A stretch of 64,000 nucleotides of DNA, from contig JAFDYU010000019.1 of assembly GCA_018267285.1 (NCBI GenBank), positions 85,959 to 149,958 of the forward strand, in the 5' to 3' direction. Numbering within the stretch: position 1 is the first letter of the stretch; the number at the start of each line of letters is the position of its first letter. Positions 1,358-11,682 of the stretch are shown here, one piece after another. The notes under the pieces were generated by a model. The model was not told the DNA's origin and ran no database searches. It saw only the letters and a program-made list of their open reading frames with translations. The translations under genes and the position numbers were made by a program. Source of the stretch: Bacteroidota bacterium (GTDB taxonomy: Bacteria > Bacteroidota > Bacteroidia > Cytophagales > Cyclobacteriaceae).

Positions 1358-2692
1358 TTAACGTTTGGTTAATTTTTCGATGGCACGATTAGCACTATCA
1401 AAATAAAAAGACTCTACCGTCTTTTGAAAGTTATCGACAATTTCATCGTTACAAAGATTGCCAATGCTCCCTTCGTGGGTATGATGAATTTCCGTTGAAT
1501 AGGTAAAGTTACCCTGTTCAATAGCAAGCCCTATTTTTTTGTACGCATCGCGAAAAGGCATTCCACCCAGCACGAGCTTGTTCACTTCTTCCACGCTGAA
1601 CAAAAATTTATATTTTTCGTCTTCAAGCAAGTGGTCTTTTATTTTAATGTTAGACAACATCAGCGAAGCCATTTTTAAGCAACTTGTTAATGTGGCGAAG
1701 GCAGGAAAAATTTTTTCTTTCAATAATTGAAAATCGCGGTGGTAGCCCGAAGGTAAATTGCCGATGAGCAACGTAATTTCACCCGGCAGAGACTGAAGCG
1801 TATTGCATTTTGCACGGATCAGTTCAAATACATCAGGGTTTTTTTTGTGCGGCATAATGCTGCTGCCCGTAGTCAATTCATCGGGGAAAGAAATGAAATT
1901 GAAATTCTGATTTAAGAAAAGACAAACATCCATCGAAAGTTTGGACAGCGTGGCGGCCACATTCGCGATTGCCTGCGCAACTATTTTTTCTGTTTTTCCT
2001 CTGCCCATCTGCGCATAAACCACATTGTAGTTCAAGTCTTCAAAGCCGAGCAGCTCGGTGGTCATTTTGCGGTTGATGGGGAAAGAAGACCCATAGCCTG
2101 CTGCTGAGCCAAGTGGATTTTTGTTTACCACACGATAGGCCGCCTGAAGGGTTATCAAATCATCGGCCAGGCTTTCGGCATACGCGCCAAACCACAGACC
2201 AAACGAAGAGGGCATGGCAAGCTGCAAATGGGTATAGCCGGGCAGAAGCTTCTCTTTGTTTTCGTTGCTTTTTAAAATCAGCAGATCAAAAAACGATTTT
2301 ATGGCAGAGGTGAGATTTTGAATTTCATGGCGAAGGAATAGTTTGATATCCACCAGCACCTGATCGTTCCGGCTTCGGCCACTGTGTATTTTTTTTCCGG
2401 TGTCGCCAAGTTTTCGGGTCAGCAGCAATTCCACCTGCGAGTGAATGTCTTCCACTCCATCCTCGATTTTAAAATTTCCGGATTCGATTTCCCGATAAAT
2501 GTTTTTCAGCTCGGTACGTAAAACAGTGAAGTCCTCTTGGCTCATTAGGTTGATGGAGCTAAGCATTTGAATGTGCGCCAGCGAACCGAGTACATCGAAG
2601 CGTGCGAGGTGCAAATCCATTTCGAGATCGTTGCCCACCGTAAACTCACTAACCTCTGCCGAGGCGTCTTTGTTTTTTTGCCAGAGTTTCAT
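1358..2692 (-). CDS. argH: argininosuccinate lyase
   Basis: Last step of arginine synthesis: cleaves argininosuccinate to arginine and fumarate. The 444-aa protein carries the fumarase/lyase superfamily signature GSSIMPHKKNPD at residues 276-287, with catalytic Ser278. Other conserved blocks are SGRSRNDQ (104-111) and GYTHLQ (152-157, with His155 the likely base). Length matches the family (about 450-460 aa). It is the most distal arg gene of the operon, and its ATG overlaps the stop of the deacylase gene by 4 nt, implying translational coupling. Confidence 0.95.
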   Translation of the reverse strand: MKLWQKNKDASAEVSEFTVGNDLEMDLHLARFDVLGSLAHIQMLSSINLMSQEDFTVLRTELKNIYREIESGNFKIEDGVEDIHSQVELLLTRKLGDTGKKIHSGRSRNDQVLVDIKLFLRHEIQNLTSAIKSFFDLLILKSNENKEKLLPGYTHLQLAMPSSFGLWFGAYAESLADDLITLQAAYRVVNKNPLGSAAGYGSSFPINRKMTTELLGFEDLNYNVVYAQMGRGKTEKIVAQAIANVAATLSKLSMDVCLFLNQNFNFISFPDELTTGSSIMPHKKNPDVFELIRAKCNTLQSLPGEITLLIGNLPSGYHRDFQLLKEKIFPAFATLTSCLKMASLMLSNIKIKDHLLEDEKYKFLFSVEEVNKLVLGGMPFRDAYKKIGLAIEQGNFTYSTEIHHTHEGSIGNLCNDEIVDNFQKTVESFYFDSANRAIEKLTKR

Positions 2693-3744
2693 AAACCTTC
2701 AATCAAGCGAATATACAATTCAATTCCCTTTTCAATTTCGCTGATGAAAATAAATTCATCTGCGCTGTGCGAGCGGGCCGAATCGCCCGGACCTATTTTT
2801 ACCGAGGGCACCGGTATCAAGGCCTGATCGGAAGTGGTGGGCGAGCCGTACTGAGGCAGTGCTAATTTTTTTCCGGCCTTTACAAGCGGATGGCTTGCTT
2901 CGATGCCCGATGGACGAAGCCGCAGCGAACGCGGTGTTACTTCGCATTTCACGTTTTGCTTTACTTCGCTAAGCACGTCTTCGAGCGAATACGCATCGGT
3001 TACCCGGCAGTCAACCGTAAATTTGCATTCGGGAGGAACCTGGTTGTGTGCTTGCCCGGCATGAACTACAGTTACATTCATTTTCGTTCTCCCCAATACG
3101 GGAGACACTTTGGAAAATTGATGAGAACGGAACCATTCCATATCGCGCATTGCCTCGTAGATGGCGTTCACCCCTTCTTCGCGCGCTGCGTGGCCGGCCT
3201 TTCCGCTGGCCACACAATCGAGAACCAATAATCCTTTTTCGGCAACAGCCATTTCCATTTTTGTAGGCTCTCCAACAATGGCACAATCAATTTTTGGAAG
3301 ATCGTTCCAGATCAACTCAATTCCGCCTGTACCAGAAATTTCTTCTTCGGCTGTGGCAGCCACGATGATATTGTAATTGAGATTTTGTTTTTCGTAAAAA
3401 TAAAAATAGGTGAGGAGTAGGGCCACCAACGGGCCACCCGCATCGTTGCTTCCGAGCCCGAATAATTTTCCATCGATAATATCTGCGGAATAGGGATCGC
3501 GCGTATAGGCCGGATTTGGCCGCACGGTGTCGTGATGCGAATTTAAAAGAAGCGTTGGCTTTGCCGGATTAAAAAATTTATTTATAGACCACACATTGTT
3601 GCCTTTGCGCTTACTTTCCATGCCGTGGTGTTTGAAGAAAATTTCTAACAACGCGGCTGTCTTATCTTCTTCTTTGCTGAAAGAAGGAATGGTTATGAGT
3701 TGCTGAAGCAATTCAATGGCTATATGGCCGAGGTGCTCTTTCAT
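2689..3744 (-). CDS. M20 family N-acyl-ornithine/citrulline deacylase (ArgE-type)
   Basis: Zinc-dependent M20 deacylase of the ArgE/DapE kind, 351 aa. Visible metal ligands are H70-x-D72, D101 in the SNDAGG block, E134/E135 in AEEE, E159 in VGEPT, and a His near the C-terminus (SHSADE). In arginine operons with an acylornithine carbamoyltransferase, this enzyme usually removes the acetyl or succinyl group from N-acylcitrulline rather than N-acylornithine. That fits here because the carbamoyltransferase gene is in the same operon and argJ is absent (inference). It overlaps argB upstream and argH downstream by 4 nt each. Confidence 0.87.
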   Translation of the reverse strand: MKEHLGHIAIELLQQLITIPSFSKEEDKTAALLEIFFKHHGMESKRKGNNVWSINKFFNPAKPTLLLNSHHDTVRPNPAYTRDPYSADIIDGKLFGLGSNDAGGPLVALLLTYFYFYEKQNLNYNIIVAATAEEEISGTGGIELIWNDLPKIDCAIVGEPTKMEMAVAEKGLLVLDCVASGKAGHAAREEGVNAIYEAMRDMEWFRSHQFSKVSPVLGRTKMNVTVVHAGQAHNQVPPECKFTVDCRVTDAYSLEDVLSEVKQNVKCEVTPRSLRLRPSGIEASHPLVKAGKKLALPQYGSPTTSDQALIPVPSVKIGPGDSARSHSADEFIFISEIEKGIELYIRLIEGL

Positions 3745-4532
3745 TGAAGTGTGATTAAAGTGCCTTGAGTGGTATAGCCTGTGTTGGTGAGCAGGTGTGT
3801 ATGGCTGCCAATCAACACTTCTTTAACCCCAGAGCGGATGGCGCTGAACGCATTTTCCAACTTGGGCAGAATTCCGTCATGCAATGCGCCTTCGCTCAAA
3901 AGTTTATTGTACAGGGCCTGGTTCAGGTTGGTGATGACGGAGTTCTCATCGGATATATTTCTTAGCACACCCGGTTTTTCAAAACAGAAAATTAAGCGGG
4001 TATCGAAGTGCTTGCTCAGGGCGATGGCGAGCACCGATGCAATGGTATCGGCATTGGTGTTGAGCATTTCGCCCTGCGCATGTGTAAGCGGTGCAAAAAC
4101 AGGAACTACATTTTGTTTTAAAAGAAAATAAAGGAACGATGAATTGATATTTTCGGGTGCGATGTCGCCCACAAACCCATAATCAATTTTGCCCACTTCT
4201 CTTTTTACGGCTTTAATGAGATTGCCATCGGCACCAGTCACTCCAATGGCATTGCAGTGCAAGAATTGTAAGTGCGCGGTAATCTGCTTGTTGATGAGCC
4301 CGCCATAAACCATGGTTACGAGGTCTCGAGTTGGCTTATCGGTTATCCTGCGCCCATCAACATATTTCGATTCGATGCCGAGTTTATCTCCGATAGCCGT
4401 AGCGATTTTGCCACCGCCATGAATTAATATTTTTGGAGATTGGATGGAGGCAAAATCGTTTAGGAATTTCCCCAACGACTTTTCATCGTCCAACACATTG
4501 CCGCCAATTTTTATGATGTACAGTTTATTCAT
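3741..4532 (-). CDS. argB: acetylglutamate kinase
   Basis: Phosphorylates N-acyl-L-glutamate at the gamma carboxylate, the second step of ornithine synthesis. The 263-aa sequence has the amino-acid kinase N-terminal KIGGNVLDD block (residues 8-16), the IHGGGKIA nucleotide/phosphate loop near 38-45, and a GADGNLIKA stretch near 120, all typical of ArgB. Length matches the short form, which lacks the N-terminal helix of arginine-inhibited enzymes, so direct arginine feedback is less likely (inference). Some Bacteroidota use succinyl rather than acetyl intermediates, and the sequence alone does not settle which is used here. Confidence 0.92.
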   Translation of the reverse strand: MNKLYIIKIGGNVLDDEKSLGKFLNDFASIQSPKILIHGGGKIATAIGDKLGIESKYVDGRRITDKPTRDLVTMVYGGLINKQITAHLQFLHCNAIGVTGADGNLIKAVKREVGKIDYGFVGDIAPENINSSFLYFLLKQNVVPVFAPLTHAQGEMLNTNADTIASVLAIALSKHFDTRLIFCFEKPGVLRNISDENSVITNLNQALYNKLLSEGALHDGILPKLENAFSAIRSGVKEVLIGSHTHLLTNTGYTTQGTLITLQ

Positions 4533-4555
4533 TACGCTTGATAACTAAGATTATT

Positions 4556-5512
4556 TTACTTCAACTCTTTTATTATTTCTTGCAAAACCGATTGAGCTGC
4601 CCACACCCGGTTGCCGGCTTGCTGTGTAACTAAACTTTGCGCACCATCGAGCACTTCATTGCTTAGTTCGATATTTCTTCGCACGGGCAGACAGTGCATT
4701 ATTTTTGCCTTTCTGGTTTCTTCTAATTTTGTTTGGGTCAACATCCAGTTCGGATCGCTGGTGTAAACTTTTCCGTAATCGTGGTAAGCACTCCAGTTTT
4801 TTACATACACAAAATCCGCATCTTTTAGTGCTTCTTTTTGATCGTATAAAATAGCAGCACCATCGGTAAATTGTTTGTCGAGTTCATAATTCTCGGGATG
4901 TGTAATTACAAACTCGGCCTGCCCCCAGGCATTGATCCATTGGGCAAAGCTGTTGGCCACACATTGAGGCAATGCTTTAACGTGCGGTGCCCAGGTTAAA
5001 ACTATTTTTGGTTTTCTTTTTTCCAGAAATGTTTCGGTGATGGTAATGAGGTCGGCTAGACTTTGTAGCGGATGAAGCGTAGCGCTTTCGAGGCTCACCA
5101 CGGGCAGCCCGGAATATTTGATAAACTGCTGAAGGAAAAACTCACAGTAATCTTTGGCTTTGTCGTGCAGAGAAGGGAACGTGCGGATGCCAAGTATATC
5201 AAAATATTTTCCGAGCACGGGTGCAGCGTCTTTCACGTGCTCCACTGAAGTGCCGCTCATTATTACTTCCTCTTCAAACTCAAGAGCCCACCCTTCGCTA
5301 CCCACGTTAAAGACGATTACTTCCATACCCAGATTTTTTGCAGCGAGTTGCGTGCTGATGCGCGTGCGCAAGCTTGGATTTAAAAAAAGTAAGCCCATCG
5401 TTTTATTTGCCCCTAGATGTTTGTCTTTAAATGGGTTTGCTTTGTAGGCCAACGCTTTTTCTATCAAGTCCGGGATGGAAGGAACATCAAATACAGAAGT
5501 AAATTTTTTCAT
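4556..5512 (-). CDS. argF': N-acylornithine carbamoyltransferase (acetyl- or succinyl-)
   Basis: Transfers a carbamoyl group to the acylated ornithine. The start is taken as the ATG at 5512 (MKKFTS), which overlaps the argD stop as ATGA; a GTG 12 nt upstream is the alternative. The carbamoyl-phosphate site appears as NPSLRTR (not the STRTR of plain OTCase), with HPLQSLAD in mid-protein and HCLPVRRN near the C-terminus. These features and the 318-aa length fit the acetyl/succinyl-ornithine transcarbamylase branch. Acetyl versus succinyl preference is known to depend on one residue in the loop before EHVKD; here that loop reads GTSVEHVKD, which I cannot assign with certainty. Confidence 0.88.
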   Translation of the reverse strand: MKKFTSVFDVPSIPDLIEKALAYKANPFKDKHLGANKTMGLLFLNPSLRTRISTQLAAKNLGMEVIVFNVGSEGWALEFEEEVIMSGTSVEHVKDAAPVLGKYFDILGIRTFPSLHDKAKDYCEFFLQQFIKYSGLPVVSLESATLHPLQSLADLITITETFLEKRKPKIVLTWAPHVKALPQCVANSFAQWINAWGQAEFVITHPENYELDKQFTDGAAILYDQKEALKDADFVYVKNWSAYHDYGKVYTSDPNWMLTQTKLEETRKAKIMHCLPVRRNIELSNEVLDGAQSLVTQQAGNRVWAAQSVLQEIIKELK

Positions 5513-6645
5513 ACGTGTGCCCACTTATTAAATTCGACCGATAACGCCTCGATTAGAATTTCGACTTCCGATTTTTTTAAAGCAAGCGAAGGTAGCAATC
5601 GCACGGTGTTTGGTTTGGCTTCACCGGTAAAAATATGGTGTTTGAAAAGCAAATCTTTGCGTAAAGAAGTTTGCGACTCGGGCAAATCGAAACCGATCAT
5701 CAGCCCTGTGCCGCGCACATCTTTTACCATTTCAAATTTTTTCAATTCTGTTTTGCAAAAACTTCCTACAACAGATGCATTGGTCATCAGGTCTTCCTGT
5801 TCGATCACCTCCAGTACGGCAAGCGCTACCGCGCAAGCCAGATAATTTCCGCCAAAAGTAGTGCCGAGCATTCCGCTCCAGGGTTTTATTGCCGGGTGGA
5901 TCAGCACTCCGCCAATCGGGAAACCATTGCCCATGCCTTTGGCTGTTGTAATTAAATCGGGCTTTATGGCAGAATGCTGATGGGCGAAAAACTTGCCCGA
6001 ACGTCCGTAGCCCGATTGTATCTCATCGAGGATTAACAGTGCGCCAACTTGTTGGCATTTTTTCGAAAGCAATTCCAGAAAATCATTCGTAGCAACATGG
6101 ATTCCGCCTACGCCTTGAATTCCTTCCACAATTACCGCGGCCGCCTCCGAATCAATTTTTTCTTCTAATGGTTTTAACTCATTAAACGGCAAAAATTCTA
6201 TTTGGTGGCCGGCATTAAAAGGGGCAACGATTTTTGGGTTATCGGTGGCTGCCACCGCCCCCGATGTTCTTCCGTGAAACGCCCCGGTAAAGGCTATTAT
6301 TTTTTTTCTGCCGGTTACAAAGGAAGCGAGCTTCAATGCGTTTTCATTGGCCTCCGCGCCTGAATTGCACAAGAACATCTGATAGTTGGTGTAGTCCGAC
6401 ACGTGCCCTATTTTTTCGGCAAGCTGCTCTTGCAACGAATTTTTTACACTGTTGGAGTAAAAAGAAATTTTATGGAGCTGATCTTTCAGCCGATCAACGT
6501 AATGCGGATGATTGTGCCCAATCGAAATCACCGCATGGCCACCGTACAGATCTAAATATTTTTTTCCTTCCGTGTCCCACAGCCAGGAGCCTTCCGCTTT
6601 TACGGGCTCGATGGGGAAGAGCGGATAAACGTCAAAGAGTTTCAT
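5509..6645 (-). CDS. argD: acetylornithine aminotransferase
   Basis: Class III PLP aminotransferase converting N-acyl-glutamate semialdehyde to N-acylornithine. In the 378-aa protein, the PLP lysine is K236 in TTAKGMGNG. D207 in ILDEIQSGYGR contacts the pyridine nitrogen, and CNSGAEANENALK (93-105) binds the phosphate. Length and motifs match ArgD. The gene lies 8 bp after proC and overlaps the carbamoyltransferase start by 4 nt. A shared role in acetyl- and succinyl-ornithine chemistry is possible, as in enzymes of the AstC/ArgD group. Confidence 0.93.
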   Translation of the reverse strand: MKLFDVYPLFPIEPVKAEGSWLWDTEGKKYLDLYGGHAVISIGHNHPHYVDRLKDQLHKISFYSNSVKNSLQEQLAEKIGHVSDYTNYQMFLCNSGAEANENALKLASFVTGRKKIIAFTGAFHGRTSGAVAATDNPKIVAPFNAGHQIEFLPFNELKPLEEKIDSEAAAVIVEGIQGVGGIHVATNDFLELLSKKCQQVGALLILDEIQSGYGRSGKFFAHQHSAIKPDLITTAKGMGNGFPIGGVLIHPAIKPWSGMLGTTFGGNYLACAVALAVLEVIEQEDLMTNASVVGSFCKTELKKFEMVKDVRGTGLMIGFDLPESQTSLRKDLLFKHHIFTGEAKPNTVRLLPSLALKKSEVEILIEALSVEFNKWAHV

Positions 6646-6653
6646 TTCTGTCT

Positions 6654-7451
6654 TTACTTTTTTATTCCATTAATTTTTTCGAAAGAAGTCATGATCCCAC
6701 GTATCAAAGCCGAACTTAGCCCTTGATGTTCCATTTCGTTTAGCCCCGCAATGGTGCAGCCTTCGGGGGTTGTTACTTTATCGATTTCAAGTTCGGGGTG
6801 CGATTCGCTGGAGAGCAAAAGAGTGGCCGCGCCTTGAGCCGTTTGTGCCGCCATCAGTTGGGCTTCTTCGGCATCGAAGCCCATTTGAATTCCGCCCTGA
6901 GTAGCAGCGCGCACATAGCGCATAAAAAAAGCAATACCGCTGGCCGCAAGCACGGTGGCTGCTTTCATCAGGCGTTCTTCAATAATCAGCGTTGTGCCCA
7001 GGCCGTCAAAAAGTCTTTTTACATCAGCCAGTTGTTTAGCACTCGCGTCTTTTGAGCAGAGGCACGTCATCGATTGACCTATTGCAATCGCTGTGTTGGG
7101 CATGGCACGGATGATTGCGGTTTTCTTTTTCAGGTACGATGAAATTTCTTCGGTCGAAATTCCGGTGATGGTAGAAACCAAGACTTGCTTGCGGTGAACA
7201 GAAGAACCAACCTCTGACAAGACCGATGCAAGTTGCTTGGGCTGCACACAAAGAATAACCAATGAAGCGTTTTTTACTGCTTCGTTATTGTTGTTGTTCA
7301 TTCGAAACCCTTCTTTCTTCAAATGGTTTATCTTCGAAAGATTTCTGCGGGTGATTGTAATGTCTGTGGCTTTGGCAAGTTTAGATTTTACGAGGCCTAA
7401 TGCTATGGCACTGCCCAGATTGCCGCCACCGATAATGGTAATTTTTTTCAC
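6654..7451 (-). CDS. proC: pyrroline-5-carboxylate reductase
   Basis: Reduces pyrroline-5-carboxylate to proline with NAD(P)H. The 265-aa protein starts with the Rossmann loop IIGGGNLGSA (residues 6-15). It has the ProC blocks RAMPNTAIAIG near 114-124 and AASGIAFFM near 170, and the C-terminal TTPEGCTIAGLNEME region typical of the family. It lies inside the arginine operon, 1 bp from argC and 8 bp from argD. This suggests proline and arginine synthesis from glutamate are co-controlled here, though no proA or proB is in the window. Confidence 0.93.
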   Translation of the reverse strand: MKKITIIGGGNLGSAIALGLVKSKLAKATDITITRRNLSKINHLKKEGFRMNNNNNEAVKNASLVILCVQPKQLASVLSEVGSSVHRKQVLVSTITGISTEEISSYLKKKTAIIRAMPNTAIAIGQSMTCLCSKDASAKQLADVKRLFDGLGTTLIIEERLMKAATVLAASGIAFFMRYVRAATQGGIQMGFDAEEAQLMAAQTAQGAATLLLSSESHPELEIDKVTTPEGCTIAGLNEMEHQGLSSALIRGIMTSFEKINGIKK

Positions 7452-7452
7452 T

Positions 7453-8430
7453 TTAAAAACTTGTCGATTTTAATTTTAGTCCTGTTGTTTCTTCAAGGCC
7501 AAACATCAAATTCATATTTTGAACCGCTTGCCCGCTGGCGCCTTTCAATAAATTATCAAGGGCCGTGTGCACCACCAGTTTGTTGCCTTCTTTTTCAAGA
7601 TGCACCAGACATTTGTTGGTGTTTACTACTTGTTTGAGATCAATCGTAGAATCGGCCACGTGCGTAAAAGGATGTGTTGAATAGAAATCGCTATAGAGTT
7701 GGTTCAACTCCGAAAGCGATTTTTCCGATTCAACGATTGAACTCACAAAAATGCCCCGTGTAAAATCTCCGCGCCACGGAATAAAATTTACATCCGATTG
7801 GTAATTTGGCTGAAGCGATTTCAAGGTTTGACTTATTTCGCTTAGGTGCTGATGCTTCAAAGTTTTGTATGCAGAGATGTTGTTGGCACGCCATGAAAAG
7901 TGCGTAGTGTCTTGCAGTTTCTGCCCCGCACCAGTTGAGCCGGTAATGCCGGTTGCATAGACTTCGCCCAGTAGGCCGGCCTTAGCAAGTGGCAATAAGC
8001 CTAATTGAATGGTTGTGGCAAAGCAGCCCGGGTTGGCGATGTTGTCGGCCATTTTAATTTTATCGCGCTGAAGTTCGGGTAGGCCATAAACAAAATTTCT
8101 TCCGGTTATCGAATCACCTAAACGAAAATCATTTCCAAGGTCGATAATCTTCGTTGTTGAGCGAAAAGTATTTTCTGTTAAAAATTTTTTACTCTCCCCA
8201 TGGCTCATGCAGAGGAAGACCACATCAACCTCTTTATCGAATGAAGAGGTGAATTTCAGTACTGTATCGCCTTGCAAGTCGGTGTGGACTTCGTGTAGAA
8301 ATTTTCCTTCCTGGCTTCTGCTTTGTACAAAAGTTAATTCAACGTTGGGGTGATGCAACAGCAAACGAACCGTTTCGCCACCGGTATAACCGGCACCGCC
8401 AATAATCCCTGCTCTGATTTTGTTTGCCAT
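7453..8430 (-). CDS. argC: N-acetyl-gamma-glutamyl-phosphate reductase
   Basis: NADPH-dependent reduction of N-acyl-glutamyl phosphate to the semialdehyde. Of 325 aa, the N-terminus shows the dinucleotide loop GIIGGAGYTGGE (8-19), and the catalytic cysteine is C136 in ANPGCFATT. The SHGES segment near 76-80 and GSTGAGQ near 166 also match ArgC (type 1). Length is normal. It follows argG by 14 bp on the same strand. Confidence 0.95.
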   Translation of the reverse strand: MANKIRAGIIGGAGYTGGETVRLLLHHPNVELTFVQSRSQEGKFLHEVHTDLQGDTVLKFTSSFDKEVDVVFLCMSHGESKKFLTENTFRSTTKIIDLGNDFRLGDSITGRNFVYGLPELQRDKIKMADNIANPGCFATTIQLGLLPLAKAGLLGEVYATGITGSTGAGQKLQDTTHFSWRANNISAYKTLKHQHLSEISQTLKSLQPNYQSDVNFIPWRGDFTRGIFVSSIVESEKSLSELNQLYSDFYSTHPFTHVADSTIDLKQVVNTNKCLVHLEKEGNKLVVHTALDNLLKGASGQAVQNMNLMFGLEETTGLKLKSTSF

Positions 8431-8444
8431 AATTTTTATGGATG

Positions 8445-9653
8445 TTATTTTTTCTCTTCTACTACACTTTCCTTCACGCGGTGATAAATAGCCACTTGGT
8501 TTCCAAAAATTTTTGTAAAACCTTTTACGTCTTCCCCCGACCAGCCCAAATTCATTTCGCCATACTTACCAAACTTGGATGACATCAGATCAAACTTAGA
8601 TTCGACACCATTGATTTGAAAGCGATAGGGGAAAAGCGTAAGCGAAACGTTGCCGGATACATTTTGCTGCGAATTGGTGAAGAATGATTCTACATCGCGC
8701 ATCACCGGATCGAGGTATTGGCCTTCGTGCAACCAGTTTCCATAAAATTGCGCAAGCTGATCTTTCCAGCTTAGTTGCCATTTGGTAAGCACATGTTTTT
8801 CTAATGCGTGATGGGCTTTAATAATCAATACAGGCGCAGCAGCTTCGAAACCAACGCGGCCTTTAATTCCGATAATCGTGTCGCCCACATGAATATCGCG
8901 GCCAATGCCGTAAGCCCCTGCTATTTCCTGAAGGTGCTGAATTGCTTCAACCGGGTGCGAAAACTTTTTTCCATTTACCGAAATCAGCTCACCTTTTTCA
9001 AAACCAAGCAGCACATCTTCCCGGCTGTTTGTTTTGGTAACCTGAGTTGGCCATGCTTCTTCGGGCAACATGCCAAGCGAATTCAAAGTTTCTTTGCCGC
9101 CTACCGAAGTTCCCCAAATACCTTTGTTGATGGAGTATTTCGCTTTTTCAAAATTTATTTCAACCCCATTCTTTTTCAAGTATTCTATTTCGGCTTCGCG
9201 GCTTAATTTCTTATCACGTATAGGTGTGATGATTTCTACGCTGGGTGCAAGAACTTGAATGACCATGTCGAACCGAACCTGATCGTTGCCGGCCCCGGTG
9301 CTGCCGTGTGCCACCGCATCGGCCTTAATTTCGCGGGCGTAGTTGGCAGCCGCCAAGGCCTGCGACATGCGTTCGGCACTCACGCTGAGCGGGTACGTTG
9401 CATTTTTTAAGACGTTGCCAAAAACCAGGTACTTGATTACCTTATCGTAGTAGTTTTTTGTTTCGTCAATAGTCTTGTGCGACTTCGCACCGAGGCTCAG
9501 TGCCCGATGTTCAATTTCACCGATTTCTTTTTCTGAGAAGCCTCCGGTGTTTACGGTTAACGTGTGCACTTCATAACCCAGCTCTTGGGTGAGATATATG
9601 GCGCAGTAGGAGGTATCTAATCCTCCGCTAAAGGCCAGTACAACTTTCTTCAT
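8445..9653 (-). CDS. argG: argininosuccinate synthase
   Basis: Joins citrulline and aspartate with ATP to make argininosuccinate. The start is set at the ATG at 9653, which gives the family-standard N-terminus MKKVVLAFSGGLDTS with the PP-loop at residues 7-15. An in-frame upstream start would overlap the acetyltransferase gene and add unrelated residues. The GSTGAGNDQVRF block and a C-terminal GEMNLGWSGEDV are characteristic. At 402 aa it is the usual size. It is the second gene of the operon, 44 bp after the acetyltransferase. Confidence 0.95.
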   Translation of the reverse strand: MKKVVLAFSGGLDTSYCAIYLTQELGYEVHTLTVNTGGFSEKEIGEIEHRALSLGAKSHKTIDETKNYYDKVIKYLVFGNVLKNATYPLSVSAERMSQALAAANYAREIKADAVAHGSTGAGNDQVRFDMVIQVLAPSVEIITPIRDKKLSREAEIEYLKKNGVEINFEKAKYSINKGIWGTSVGGKETLNSLGMLPEEAWPTQVTKTNSREDVLLGFEKGELISVNGKKFSHPVEAIQHLQEIAGAYGIGRDIHVGDTIIGIKGRVGFEAAAPVLIIKAHHALEKHVLTKWQLSWKDQLAQFYGNWLHEGQYLDPVMRDVESFFTNSQQNVSGNVSLTLFPYRFQINGVESKFDLMSSKFGKYGEMNLGWSGEDVKGFTKIFGNQVAIYHRVKESVVEEKK

Positions 9654-9697
9654 TGATAAAAATTGGAGTTTATATTTAGTTCGTGTAATAAAGGCGC

Positions 9698-10438
9698 CTA
9701 CCAAAATAAAAATATATTGGACGTCCGTTTTTCTTCTCCCGCATTTTTGCGCCAGCCCTTCAAGAGCATAAATTGTTTCAGGCGCATAAAGCGTTCGTAA
9801 ATTTTGGAATAGACCGCAAACTCTTTTGCCTCGCGTGTAACGGGCATAGGATTAGCTTGAGCCAAGGCTGCTAAGTTGGTGGCTTCATCTTTAGCTTTTT
9901 CTACAGGATCGTACAACATGGCCGTGCACATACAGTTTTTACGCTCCTTGCTTTTTAAAATTTCGTAGTTTACACAGCTCTGGCAGCCTTTCCAAAACTC
10001 TTCATCGGTGGTCAATTCAGAATACGTAACCGGTTCGTATCCGAGGTCTGAATTGATTTTCATTACCGCCAGCCCGGTTGTAAGTCCAAAAATTTTGGCA
10101 TTGGGGTATTTTTTTCGCGACAGTTCGAATATTTTTTTCTTGATGAGGGTGGCTACTCCGCTCTTGCGGAAAGGCGGTGAAACGATCAGCCCGCTGTTGG
10201 CTACAAATTTTTCATGCTCCCACGATTCGATGTAGCAAAAGCCTACCCACTCGCCCGATGGAGTTGTAGCCACTACGGCTTTGCCTTCCTCTATTTTCAT
10301 TTTAACATATTCAGGCGAGCGCTTGGCAATGCCCGTACCGCGGGCTTTGGCCGACTCGGCCATTTCGTTGGTAATTGTTTCGGCAAAACGCACATCGGCA
10401 GCGGTGGCTTCCCGAACAATTAAATTACTATTGTTCAC
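9698..10438 (-). CDS. GNAT acetyltransferase heading the arginine operon, candidate N-acylglutamate synthase
   Basis: GNAT-fold acetyltransferase, 246 aa, with motif A acetyl-CoA loop RKSGVA in PPFRKSGVATL (about residues 88-98). After the GNAT fold it has a cysteine cluster, CxxC then CxC about 20 residues on (GCQSC, NCMC), that could bind a metal, and a Lys/Arg-rich tail. It is the first gene of the arg operon. No argA, argJ or separate N-acetylglutamate synthase is present, so by context it likely makes N-acetyl- (or N-succinyl-) glutamate. The start is GTG at 10438; a short upstream ORF ends just inside the gene. The family assignment is firm, the substrate is inferred. Confidence 0.75.
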   Translation of the reverse strand: MNNSNLIVREATAADVRFAETITNEMAESAKARGTGIAKRSPEYVKMKIEEGKAVVATTPSGEWVGFCYIESWEHEKFVANSGLIVSPPFRKSGVATLIKKKIFELSRKKYPNAKIFGLTTGLAVMKINSDLGYEPVTYSELTTDEEFWKGCQSCVNYEILKSKERKNCMCTAMLYDPVEKAKDEATNLAALAQANPMPVTREAKEFAVYSKIYERFMRLKQFMLLKGWRKNAGEEKRTSNIFLFW

Positions 10439-10514
10439 AATGGATTTGATTTAGAATTAATAAAAAGTAAAAAAGCACAGACAGCGAAATGCCCTCGGCA
10501 CCTCGCTTTTTCAT
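10428..10514 (-). CDS. possible short upstream ORF in the arg leader
   Basis: A 28-codon ATG ORF begins with MKKRGAEG, has a hydrophobic middle (LSVLFYFLLIL) and ends 11 nt inside the acetyltransferase gene. Its coding sequence contains one strong hairpin of the leader RNA. It has only one arginine codon besides the initial KKR, so it is not a classical arginine-rich attenuator peptide. It could couple translation to the next gene or may be chance. Confidence 0.2.
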   Translation of the reverse strand: MKKRGAEGISLSVLFYFLLILNQIHCEQ

Positions 10515-10719
10515 TGAACCAATGATGGGGGTATCAGATTCGGATCCGCCTATGCGGACATCGGCCTGTGCTGACCGATAACGGGTAGGATTTGTTCAGC
10601 CTTGGTTGGCCGAAAAAAGTGCTTGCCGAGAAACGACAGGCTTTTGGGTTTTTGAATTCTTTTTCCAATTCGCGTTAGTGGTTTTGAGTTAGATAAAAGG
10701 CATTCGTAATTTGTTTTCG
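10439..10719 (-). promoter_or_regulatory. structured 5' leader RNA of the arginine operon (candidate riboswitch or attenuator)
   Basis: The minus-strand leader can form five hairpins: 10595-10614 (7 bp), 10560-10579 (7 bp, loop AGCACA), 10545-10558 (5 bp), 10511-10525 (6 bp) and 10484-10506 (10 bp, loop GAG). The loop of the second can pair with 10474-10480, giving AGCACAG/CTGTGCT, directly before a run of six U. Three stems are complete only with G-U pairs on the minus strand; the plus strand would have A-C mismatches, so the structured transcript is the arg leader. Alternative pairings also exist: 10636-10641 with 10564-10569. I recognise no known riboswitch class. Confidence 0.5.
10682..10713 (+). 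promoter_or_regulatory. kdsA promoter, divergent from arg
   Basis: TTTTG (10682-10686), 20 nt, then TAATTTG (10707-10713), one base short of the TAnnTTTG consensus. It is placed back to back with the arg promoter, so the two promoters face away from each other within about 70 bp. The remaining 110 nt to kdsA is an untranslated leader in which I see nothing else. Confidence 0.4.
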
Positions 10720-10752
10720 CAAAATTAAGCGTTAAAATTTTAAATAAGTCAA
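10720..10752 (-). promoter_or_regulatory. arg operon promoter
   Basis: On the minus strand TAATTTTG (10720-10727) is an exact match to the Bacteroidota -7 element TAnnTTTG. A TTG (10750-10752, in TATTGAC) lies 22 nt upstream, slightly more than the usual spacing. It would start a leader of about 275 nt ahead of the acetyltransferase gene. Confidence 0.5.
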
Positions 10753-10830: not shown

Positions 10831-11682
10831 ATGAATAAGAAAATAGTAAGGGTAGGTAAAATTGAAGCCGGAGCTGATGAGCTTTTCCTGATCTCAGGCC
10901 CTTGTGTAATTGAAGAGGAAAAAATCATGATGCAAACGGCTGAGAAACTGAAAGAAGTTTCCGAACGCCTGAAAATCAACATTATCTACAAGTCGTCTTT
11001 TCAAAAGGACAACCGCAGCAGCCTGAAATATTACAATGGCCCCGGCCTTGACAAAGGCGTGAAGCTGCTGGCGAAAATCAAAGAACAGTTTGGGTTTCCG
11101 GTGCTCACGGATATTCATTACCCCGATCAGGCAGCCGCAGCCGCCCCGGTGGTAGATGTGCTCCAGATACCTGCTTATCTCTGTATGCAGACCTCGTTGA
11201 TGGTAGCTGCTGCCAAGACAGGTCGTGTTGTTAATATCAAGCATGGGCAGTTCCTTGCCCCTGACAACATGAAGCACCCTGTTACCAAATGCGTGGAGGC
11301 TGGTAATGATCAGATCATCCTTACCGAGCGCGGTTATACATTTGGTTACAACGACTTGATTGTTGACCCCCGTAGCTTTTATCACCTGAACAAAATTGGA
11401 TACCCGGTGGTGTTTGATGTAACCCATGCTATCCGTAAGTACGGAATCCCCAGTGCCGATGCCAAAGGTGGGGCAAGAGAATTTTTGCCCGTTCTGTCGC
11501 GTGCAGGCGTTGCTTCGGGCGTAGATGGGCTTTTCATTGAAACTCACCCCGATCCCGAAAAAGCATTGTGCGATGCCGCCAGCCAGCTTTGTGTCTACGA
11601 TCTCGAAGAGTTTATGAAACCCCTTCTCGAGCTTCACGCAGTTGAAGTTAAATACCGCCAAAGCGATGTGGTATTGAAATAA
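10831..11682 (+). CDS. kdsA: 3-deoxy-8-phosphooctulonate (KDO-8-P) synthase, metal-dependent type
   Basis: Condenses arabinose-5-phosphate and phosphoenolpyruvate to KDO-8-phosphate for lipopolysaccharide. The 283-aa protein matches KdsA over its whole length, with blocks KSSFQKDNRSS, LTDIHYPDQ, KHGQFLAP and FDVTHAIRKYG. Cys25 in SGPCVIEE sits where metal-dependent enzymes have Cys and E. coli KdsA has Asn. The other expected metal ligands (His in DVTHA, Glu in FIETH and the following Asp) are present. It is the first gene of a three-gene KDO operon. Confidence 0.93.
   Translation: MNKKIVRVGKIEAGADELFLISGPCVIEEEKIMMQTAEKLKEVSERLKINIIYKSSFQKDNRSSLKYYNGPGLDKGVKLLAKIKEQFGFPVLTDIHYPDQAAAAAPVVDVLQIPAYLCMQTSLMVAAAKTGRVVNIKHGQFLAPDNMKHPVTKCVEAGNDQIILTERGYTFGYNDLIVDPRSFYHLNKIGYPVVFDVTHAIRKYGIPSADAKGGAREFLPVLSRAGVASGVDGLFIETHPDPEKALCDAASQLCVYDLEEFMKPLLELHAVEVKYRQSDVVLK

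What the first reader, a model, noticed from the sequence alone, without database searches (positions are those of the whole stretch)
10439..10719. Densely folded leader RNA of the arginine operon, possible new riboswitch or attenuator
Five hairpins and one loop-tail pairing can be drawn on the minus strand (10595-10614, 10560-10579, 10545-10558, 10511-10525, 10484-10506, and 10566-10572 with 10474-10480), the last next to a run of six U. Three stems need G-U pairs that become A-C mismatches on the other strand, so selection appears to act on the arg transcript. An alternative pairing (10636-10641 with 10564-10569) would break the second hairpin, giving two exclusive states. I recognise no described class, and control of arg genes in Bacteroidota by RNA is not known to me.
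Basis: partly seen in the sequence, partly recalled or inferred. Interest (0 to 1): 0.8.

Follow-up and report, generated by a model that had tools for sequence, protein, structure and literature searches.

The report
Arginine leader-peptide attenuator, Bacteroidota arg operon
The folded leader is very likely a translation-sensing switch: a hidden 44-residue peptide full of arginine codons sits just before a conserved hairpin, so the cell can gauge its arginine supply before making the arginine-synthesis enzymes.

Summary
Minus strand 10668-10534 encodes a 44-residue leader peptide ending RCPHRRIRI*, between a Bacteroidota-type promoter and the GNAT-arg operon. Many relatives keep Arg-rich leader peptides with diverged sequences (RRPHRRIRI*, RSFRRQIRI*, YLSRRPRI*, RRFRNSFRA*, PRSRRGC*). 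In window-type leaders all six Arg codons occur at one conserved Arg, and AGG and CGA prevail elsewhere. A hairpin after the stop codon (10483-10507) has compensatory changes in 8 of 9 pairs (21 sequences, window included) and 9 of 9 (18 sequences). The window's genome has no ArgR; all ten genomes with a strong ArgR match plus GNAT carry argR just upstream of GNAT. Best explanation: ribosome-mediated, arginine-responsive attenuation. Cautions: no antiterminator was found, the U-tract is offset by 8 nt, and the hairpin did not emerge from two subgroup alignments. A four-codon ORF (MPFI*) precedes the peptide in 44 of 47 leaders of three subgroups, 1 of 15 in two others. Nine literature searches (capped lists) showed no such arginine attenuator.

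The parts
10720..10752 (-). Bacteroidota-type promoter: TTG at 10752-10750 (-33) and TAATTTTG at 10727-10720 (-7)
   Evidence: Sequence. Near-identical block in close relatives such as L002, L006-L009. TAnnTTT[GAC] boxes end 12-37 nt before uORF1 in relatives, one at 1 nt. The consensus is recalled, not from a call; the start site is not mapped.
10689..10703 (-). uORF1, four codons: ATG CCT TTT ATC TAA (MPFI*)
   Evidence: ATG NNN TTY NNN stop in 19/21 (A1), 10/10 (A2), 15/16 (A5) leaders against 0.15, 0.09, 0.13 expected by shuffling; only 1/11 (A3) and 0/4 (A4). Stops in these 45: TAA 28, TGA 15, TAG 2.
10534..10668 (-). uORF2, the arginine leader peptide (TTG start, 44 codons, TGA stop): (M)EKEFKNPKACRFSASTFFGQPRLNKSYPLSVSTGRCPHRRIRI*
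   Evidence: Counterparts in relatives. No Pfam match to the peptide at E <= 1.
10540..10563 (-). Control-codon region: CGA 10563-10561, AGG 10551-10549, CGG 10548-10546, CGA 10542-10540
   Evidence: Codon table of 68 leaders; codon bias.
10595..10614 (-). Hairpin UUCGGCC-AACCAA-GGCUGAA inside uORF2, possibly a pause hairpin
   Evidence: Excess folding of the first part of uORF2 (mean z -1.32 over 62 leaders); column-wise conservation in 20 relatives only 74/134.
10511..10525 (-). Hairpin UCAUUG-GUU-CAAUGA between the leader-peptide stop and the terminator
   Evidence: Excess folding after the stop codon (mean z -1.11 over 55 leaders; -1.55 in the window's subgroup, -0.06 in subgroup A2); column-wise 55/111.
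10483..10507 (-). Terminator-like hairpin AGCGAGGUGCC-GAG-GGCAUUUCGCU
   Evidence: 8 of 9 pairs with changes on both sides in 21 sequences, 9 of 9 in 18 Chryseolinea-type sequences; -15.7 kcal/mol.
10469..10474 (-). U6 tract, 8 nt after the hairpin
   Evidence: Sequence; tails of relatives.
9698..10438 (-). First gene of the operon: GNAT-family protein
   Evidence: Pfam Acetyltransf_1 E 8.2e-4, just under its cut-off; a match in 50/58 genus genomes and 137/148 family genomes.
1358..9704 (-). argG, argC, proC, argD, carbamoyltransferase (argF-type), argB, argE/dapE-type, argH
   Evidence: NCBIfam; argG (TIGR00032), argC, proC, argB and argH exceed a curated cut-off, the other names are by best match below it. 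That these form one operon is inferred from spacing and strand.

Best explanation
The leader is a ribosome-mediated attenuator of the arginine operon. Transcription starts just upstream of a four-codon ORF. Ribosomes then translate a 44-codon leader peptide whose last nine codons include four arginine codons (CGA, AGG, CGG, CGA). When charged Arg-tRNA is plentiful the ribosome reaches the UGA stop, the hairpin at 10483-10507 forms, and RNA polymerase stops before the GNAT gene. When Arg-tRNA is scarce the ribosome stalls on the Arg codons and termination is avoided, so the operon is made. Shown here by comparison: the ORF, its Arg enrichment, its synonymous Arg codon changes, the preference for AGG and CGA, and the covarying hairpin after the stop codon. 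Inferred: the transcription start, translation itself, termination at the hairpin, and the direction of the response. Not identified: what prevents the hairpin from terminating when the ribosome stalls. The confidence is for control of the operon by Arg codons of this leader peptide; the kind of termination is less certain, so the Rho rival overlaps with it.
For: Arg is the strongest outlier among 20 amino acids for clustering in upstream sORFs of 292 distinct leaders: mean maximum per 10 codons 3.52 sense, 2.71 antisense, 2.19 shuffled, z 21.7; next Ala 10.3. In 68 window-type leaders the Arg two before the stop uses all six codons, and the Arg five before it is kept in 66/68. AGG+CGA are 68% of 231 control Arg codons (position -2 excluded) but 21% of 691 Arg codons in 46 window ORFs. 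Covarying terminator-like hairpin: 94.2% of cells paired, covariation 0.649 against 0.257 shuffled, 8/9 and 9/9 pairs with double changes; far the strongest covarying helix in two of three leader alignments. The lowest-energy hairpin lies 16-32 nt after the stop in 55 of 62. No ArgR in the genome; 10 of 10 genomes with a strong ArgR match and GNAT have argR just upstream of GNAT. A covariance model finds 38 of 58 genus genomes, each best hit just upstream of GNAT, 19 of them outside the training set.
Against: No conserved antiterminator: pairing of the hairpin's 5' arm with upstream segments is at chance (mean z 0.08 and -0.08 over 55 leaders; weak -0.68 in 15 Chryseolinea-type leaders). The U-tract does not directly follow the hairpin in the window and many relatives, and the terminator scan did not call it. 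The hairpin did not emerge as a covarying helix in the third alignment (10 A2 leaders), nor in the consensus fold of 12 A3 leaders. The model missed 12 of the 50 GNAT-bearing genus genomes. Single leaders are weak: 101 of 292 reach p <= 0.05 alone, and the antisense strand also exceeds shuffles. Leu passes a simple presence test as often as Arg (70 against 67 of 94). The codon-usage yardstick comes from the window's genome only, the leaders from many species. Many sequences are close relatives, so counts are not independent.
Confidence: 0.86

Rival explanations
1. The leader peptide is a nascent-chain sensor (as recalled for SpeFL or TnaC): its C-terminus binds arginine or ornithine in the ribosome and stalls it at the stop codon, rather than stalling for lack of Arg-tRNA.
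For: Arg-Ile-stop with UGA in all 68 window-type leaders, though I chose the group by that ending and the search pattern required it. Several other leaders end in R + small residue (PRI*, PRV*, PRA*).
Against: Residues before the Arg codons differ widely among groups, and other groups end RRGC*, RRGF* or RRFRNSFRA*. The bias towards AGG and CGA fits tRNA sensing better.
Confidence: 0.1
2. An aptamer riboswitch for arginine, ornithine or another metabolite.
For: Excess folding (z -3.3).
Against: No Rfam match at gathering thresholds, only weak sub-threshold ones. The most conserved block is coding with synonymous changes. The other drawn stems are not kept column by column. Other groups encode Arg-rich peptides in different RNA.
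Confidence: 0.03
3. The leader ORF controls Rho-dependent termination or mRNA decay, as reported for orf34-speF of Salmonella, instead of an intrinsic terminator. This still makes it an arginine-sensing leader ORF, so it overlaps with the best explanation.
For: No antiterminator found; U-tract offset; the orf34-speF precedent with AGG CGG control codons and a hairpin downstream of its stop (passages of PMC6386406).
Against: The post-stop hairpin covaries strongly in two subgroups, and some relatives have a U-run directly after it (for example L003).
Confidence: 0.15
4. Chance ORF: the Arg-rich reading frame is a by-product of a GC-rich conserved RNA.
For: The antisense strand also exceeds the shuffles (2.71 against 2.19), and Ala is a second outlier (z 10.3).
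Against: Arg stays while codons change (all six at one position); diverged leaders keep Arg; Arg is by far the strongest outlier of 20 amino acids (z 21.7).
Confidence: 0.03

Closest known systems
Ribosome-mediated leader-peptide attenuators of amino-acid operons (trp, his, leu, thr, phe; recalled)
   Same: Short ORF with cognate codons, then a hairpin, then the biosynthetic operon.
   Different: Arginine is the amino acid; the lineage is Bacteroidota; UUG start; a four-codon ORF precedes it; no antiterminator recognised.
orf34-speF leader of Salmonella (PMC6386406, passages read)
   Same: Arginine codons in a leader ORF sense arginine; a hairpin lies downstream of the ORF's stop.
   Different: speF is an ornithine decarboxylase gene; there the control is through Rho, mRNA structure and RNase G; the window peptide has no Pfam match.
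carA leader of Pseudomonas aeruginosa (mentioned in PMC4997734, passages read)
   Same: A leader peptide upstream of a gene of arginine metabolism.
   Different: Per those passages arginine acts there at the transcriptional level and attenuation is possibly tied to pyrimidines; different gene and phylum.
Bacteroid-trp RNA, RF01692
   Same: An RNA motif of Bacteroidetes (table row of PMC2864571); that it is a trp attenuator is recalled.
   Different: No match in this genome; the control rang in Bacteroides ihuae.

Membership tests
Leader-peptide attenuator | Short ORF in the leader rich in codons for the operon's end product | tested here: met
Leader-peptide attenuator | Operon makes the same amino acid | tested here: met
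   NCBIfam names for arg genes
Leader-peptide attenuator | Intrinsic terminator between leader ORF and first gene | tested here: inconclusive
   Covarying hairpin after the stop codon, but the U-tract is often offset, the consensus scan misses it, and two subgroup alignments do not show it
Leader-peptide attenuator | Mutually exclusive antiterminator | tested here: inconclusive
   No signal overall, weak in one subgroup; no competing covarying helix of comparable strength
Leader-peptide attenuator | Expression responds to the amino acid | not testable with these tools
   Needs experiments
Known riboswitch or T-box classes | Match to a curated RNA family | tested here: not met
   0 matches at gathering score in the window
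Bacteroid-trp (RF01692) | Covariance-model match | tested here: not met
   0 in own genome
SpeFL/ORF34 (PF10940, number from PMC6386406) | Pfam match of the leader peptide | tested here: not met
   No Pfam family at E <= 1; a 44-residue query is a weak test
ArgR regulon | ArgR gene in the genome | tested here: not met
   0 matches; the control rang in 9 of 14 genomes; assembly 97.7% complete

The most novel reading that the evidence does not exclude
Most of Bacteroidota outside the ArgR-bearing lineages control arginine synthesis through a lineage-wide, fast-evolving arginine leader peptide. In the window's family it works as a tandem-ORF device: a four-codon ORF (MxF[I/T]*) near the 5' end loads or times ribosomes for re-initiation at a UUG leader ORF, and a stalled ribosome prevents termination without a classical antiterminator, for example by contact with RNA polymerase.
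Probability: 0.25. Interest if true: 0.78.

Novelty: new variant of a known kind. Interest (0 to 1): 0.6.

Why it matters
It offers an answer to how ArgR-less Bacteroidota may sense arginine, and makes it directly testable. Leader-peptide attenuation appears here with arginine as the sensed amino acid, in a phylum for which my searches showed little on it. It also suggests a regulator swap: the GNAT-led locus has argR upstream in some genomes and an Arg-rich leader peptide in many others.

Tried and rejected
Riboswitch reading: an Rfam search of the window and a permissive search of the region gave nothing at gathering score; the best sub-threshold match is a snoRNA on the other strand.

Antiterminator: duplex energies of the hairpin's 5' arm with the last 60 nt of the ORF, the post-stop stretch and an earlier ORF stretch were at chance overall (-0.36 and, in the window's subgroup, -0.73 for the earlier stretch). 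A helix-by-helix covariation scan gave the terminator hairpin first in the window's subgroup (21) and in Chryseolinea-type leaders (16, where one hairpin early in the ORF came second); in the third alignment (10 A2 leaders) the hairpin did not stand out and only weak helices were listed.

Long-range loop-tail pairing (10566-10572 with 10474-10480) and the alternative pairing: 74/135 and 45/114 cells paired in 20 relatives, so dropped.

Column-wise proof of the 10595-10614 hairpin failed because the hairpin shifts by a column between subgroups; only the fold z-score supports it.

Second copies of the element: three weak model hits elsewhere in the genus. Two were inspected and by my reading lie inside reading frames; the third (L320) was fetched and not examined.

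Literature: nine searches. Lists were capped at 20, so of those with more hits (28, 37: 101, 62: 378, 63: 25, 81: 76) I saw only the top 20. No listed paper was an arginine leader-peptide attenuator of an arg biosynthetic operon. Passages, never whole papers, were seen of PMC9723704, PMC7366714, PMC1262725, PMC2965389, PMC8632094, PMC4997734, PMC6386406 and PMC2864571. PMC9723704 reports leader-peptide attenuation upstream of amino-acid operons in a Flavobacterium without naming arginine in those passages; its supplement could not be read. Most subscription papers are not held.

Full report
What was reported.

What is there. The minus strand has a Bacteroidota-type promoter (TTG at 10752-10750, TAATTTTG at 10727-10720; consensus recalled), then two small ORFs. 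uORF1 is ATG CCT TTT ATC TAA (10703-10689). uORF2 runs from TTG at 10668 to TGA at 10534, 44 codons, ending GRCPHRRIRI*. Its stop is 95 nt before the GNAT start. The genes that follow are GNAT, argG, argC, proC, argD, an argF-type carbamoyltransferase, argB, an argE/dapE-type deacylase and argH (several names are by best match below the curated cut-off).

Relatives. I collected GNAT upstream regions from the genus (50 of 58 genomes match), family (137 of 148), class (111 of 296) and a named genome collection (80 loci kept of 518 relatives). Not every match was fetched: 317 loci in all, many of them the same site twice, 316 with a usable upstream stretch, 293 distinct. Leader peptides with Arg-rich tails recur with diverged sequences: RRPHRRIRI*, RSFRRQIRI*, TRRPRPTRFVRI* (Chryseolinea sp. 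L069; similar in Ohtaekwangia and Chryseosolibacter), YLSRRPRI* (Chitinophaga), PRSRRGC* (L071, Chitinophagaceae), PLRRFRNSFRA*, SRRRLFIPRV*.

Statistics. For each of 292 leaders I took, for every amino acid, the maximum count in any 10-codon stretch of an upstream sORF. Arg: 3.52 sense, 2.71 antisense, 2.19 in dinucleotide shuffles (z 21.7); next are Ala (10.3) and Pro (4.9); Leu 0.4. At 3 or more Arg: 245 of 292 sense, 167 antisense; at 4 or more: 154 sense, 60 antisense. Individually 101 of 292 reach p <= 0.05. The z assumes independence, which close relatives violate.

Codon evidence. Among 68 leaders of the window's type the Arg two codons before the stop is written with all six Arg codons (CGT 25, AGA 16, CGA 8, AGG 7, CGG 7, CGC 5) and the one five before it is Arg in 66. 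The group was picked by its Arg-Ile-stop ending and the pattern required it, so that ending proves nothing by itself; the codon spread and the other positions do. Of 231 Arg codons in the control region apart from that one, 33% are AGG and 35% CGA, against 7% and 14% of 691 Arg codons in 46 window ORFs. AGG is the rarest Arg codon there. The yardstick is one genome and the leaders come from many. Such a bias is what I would expect of codons that sense tRNA charging.

Structure. The lowest-energy hairpin lies 16-32 nt after the stop codon in 55 of 62 leaders. In the window's subgroup (21 sequences, window included) 8 of 9 pairs show changes on both sides, 94.2% of cells are paired (73.6% when shuffled; 31.7 to 54.0% when slid), and the covariation score is 0.649 against 0.257 shuffled. 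In 18 Chryseolinea-type leaders 9 of 9 pairs do. In a scan of all helices it is far ahead of any other in these two groups (2.34 against 0.15; 1.91 against 0.80), but it does not stand out in 10 A2 leaders and is absent from the consensus fold of 12 A3 leaders. Mean fold z: hairpin stretch -1.92, first part of uORF2 -1.32, post-stop stretch -1.11, last 75 nt of uORF2 -0.13. So the stems drawn over the Arg codons are not supported.

Mechanism and its gap. The layout (cognate control codons near the end of a leader ORF, then a conserved hairpin, then the operon) is that of ribosome-mediated attenuation. Two things do not fit the textbook. Pairing of the hairpin's 5' arm with upstream RNA is no better than chance, except weakly in one subgroup. 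The U-tract sits some nucleotides beyond the hairpin in the window (GUCUGUGC UUUUUU) and in many relatives, though it follows directly in some. I therefore claim arginine-responsive control by this leader peptide with confidence, intrinsic termination as likely, and leave the antitermination step open.

Regulator swap. PF01316 has no match in the window's genome. In 296 genomes of the class 16 match, 14 over the cut-off. Thirteen are strong (E below 1e-17); ten of these also have GNAT, and in all ten argR lies within 1 kb upstream on the same strand (G228, G263, G291, G317, G341, G362, G401, G450, G465, G481). Two weaker matches, G337 (just over the cut-off) and G346 (under it), are in GNAT-bearing genomes but on other contigs. 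Of the 111 GNAT-bearing genomes I scored 104. Of 94 without strong ArgR, 67 pass a simple test (3 or more Arg in 10 codons of an sORF ending 50-220 nt upstream) against 22% of shuffles. Four of the ten ArgR genomes also pass, by frames that appear to overlap argR (my reading), and Leu passes in 70 of 94. Some of the 27 misses have looser Arg tails, for example L169 and L170; for others I see none.

Specificity. A covariance model from 21 leaders finds 38 of 58 genus genomes at E <= 0.1. Every best hit is just upstream of GNAT, and 19 are outside the training set; 12 GNAT-bearing genomes are missed. Three weak extra hits lie elsewhere; two were inspected and by my reading fall inside reading frames.

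uORF1. ATG NNN TTY NNN stop occurs in 19/21, 10/10 and 15/16 leaders of three subgroups (expected 0.15, 0.09, 0.13 by shuffling), but in only 1/11 and 0/4 of two others. Codons 2 and 4 vary and all three stop codons occur. It is probably translated; its role is unknown.

Known or new. Nine literature searches (lists capped at 20) showed no such arginine attenuator. Passages seen: a Flavobacterium transcriptome paper reports leader-peptide attenuation upstream of amino-acid operons without naming arginine there (PMC9723704); a Bacteroides map notes sORFs reminiscent of leader peptides (PMC7366714); Salmonella orf34-speF uses Arg codons (PMC6386406); in Actinobacteria no conserved RNA element was seen upstream of arginine operons, and arginine genes elsewhere are said to be under T-boxes (PMC1262725); a survey of premature terminators states that, to its authors' knowledge, leader peptides had not been shown outside Proteobacteria and Actinobacteria before it, ermC apart (PMC2965389).

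Noticed in passing
window 10689-10703, minus strand: Four-codon ORF MPFI* conserved as MxF[I/T]* with TAA, TGA or TAG stops in three of five subgroups; a possible ribosome-loading or re-initiation element.
   Followed up: partly
L071, L126, L128 and other Chitinophagaceae-type leaders: A different conserved RNA (CUGAUAGG...CCURUCAG) overlaps the stop codon of the Arg leader peptide; its fold and role were not analysed.
   Followed up: no
L273, L298, L302, L308, L310-L314, L317: argR lies directly upstream of the GNAT gene in the ten genomes with a strong ArgR match and GNAT.
   Followed up: yes
window 9698-10438, minus strand: The operon's first gene is a GNAT protein with only sub-cut-off family matches; it may be the N-acyl-glutamate synthase of this pathway (inference).
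   Followed up: no
leaders such as L010, L065, L088, L146: A second small hairpin (GUGC-UUUU-GCAC type, with pair-preserving variants by eye) follows the terminator hairpin (fold z -1.03 for that stretch over 62 leaders); the window has only its 5' half.
   Followed up: partly
window 10831-11682, plus strand: kdsA (3-deoxy-8-phosphooctulonate synthase) is divergently transcribed next to the arg leader.
   Followed up: no
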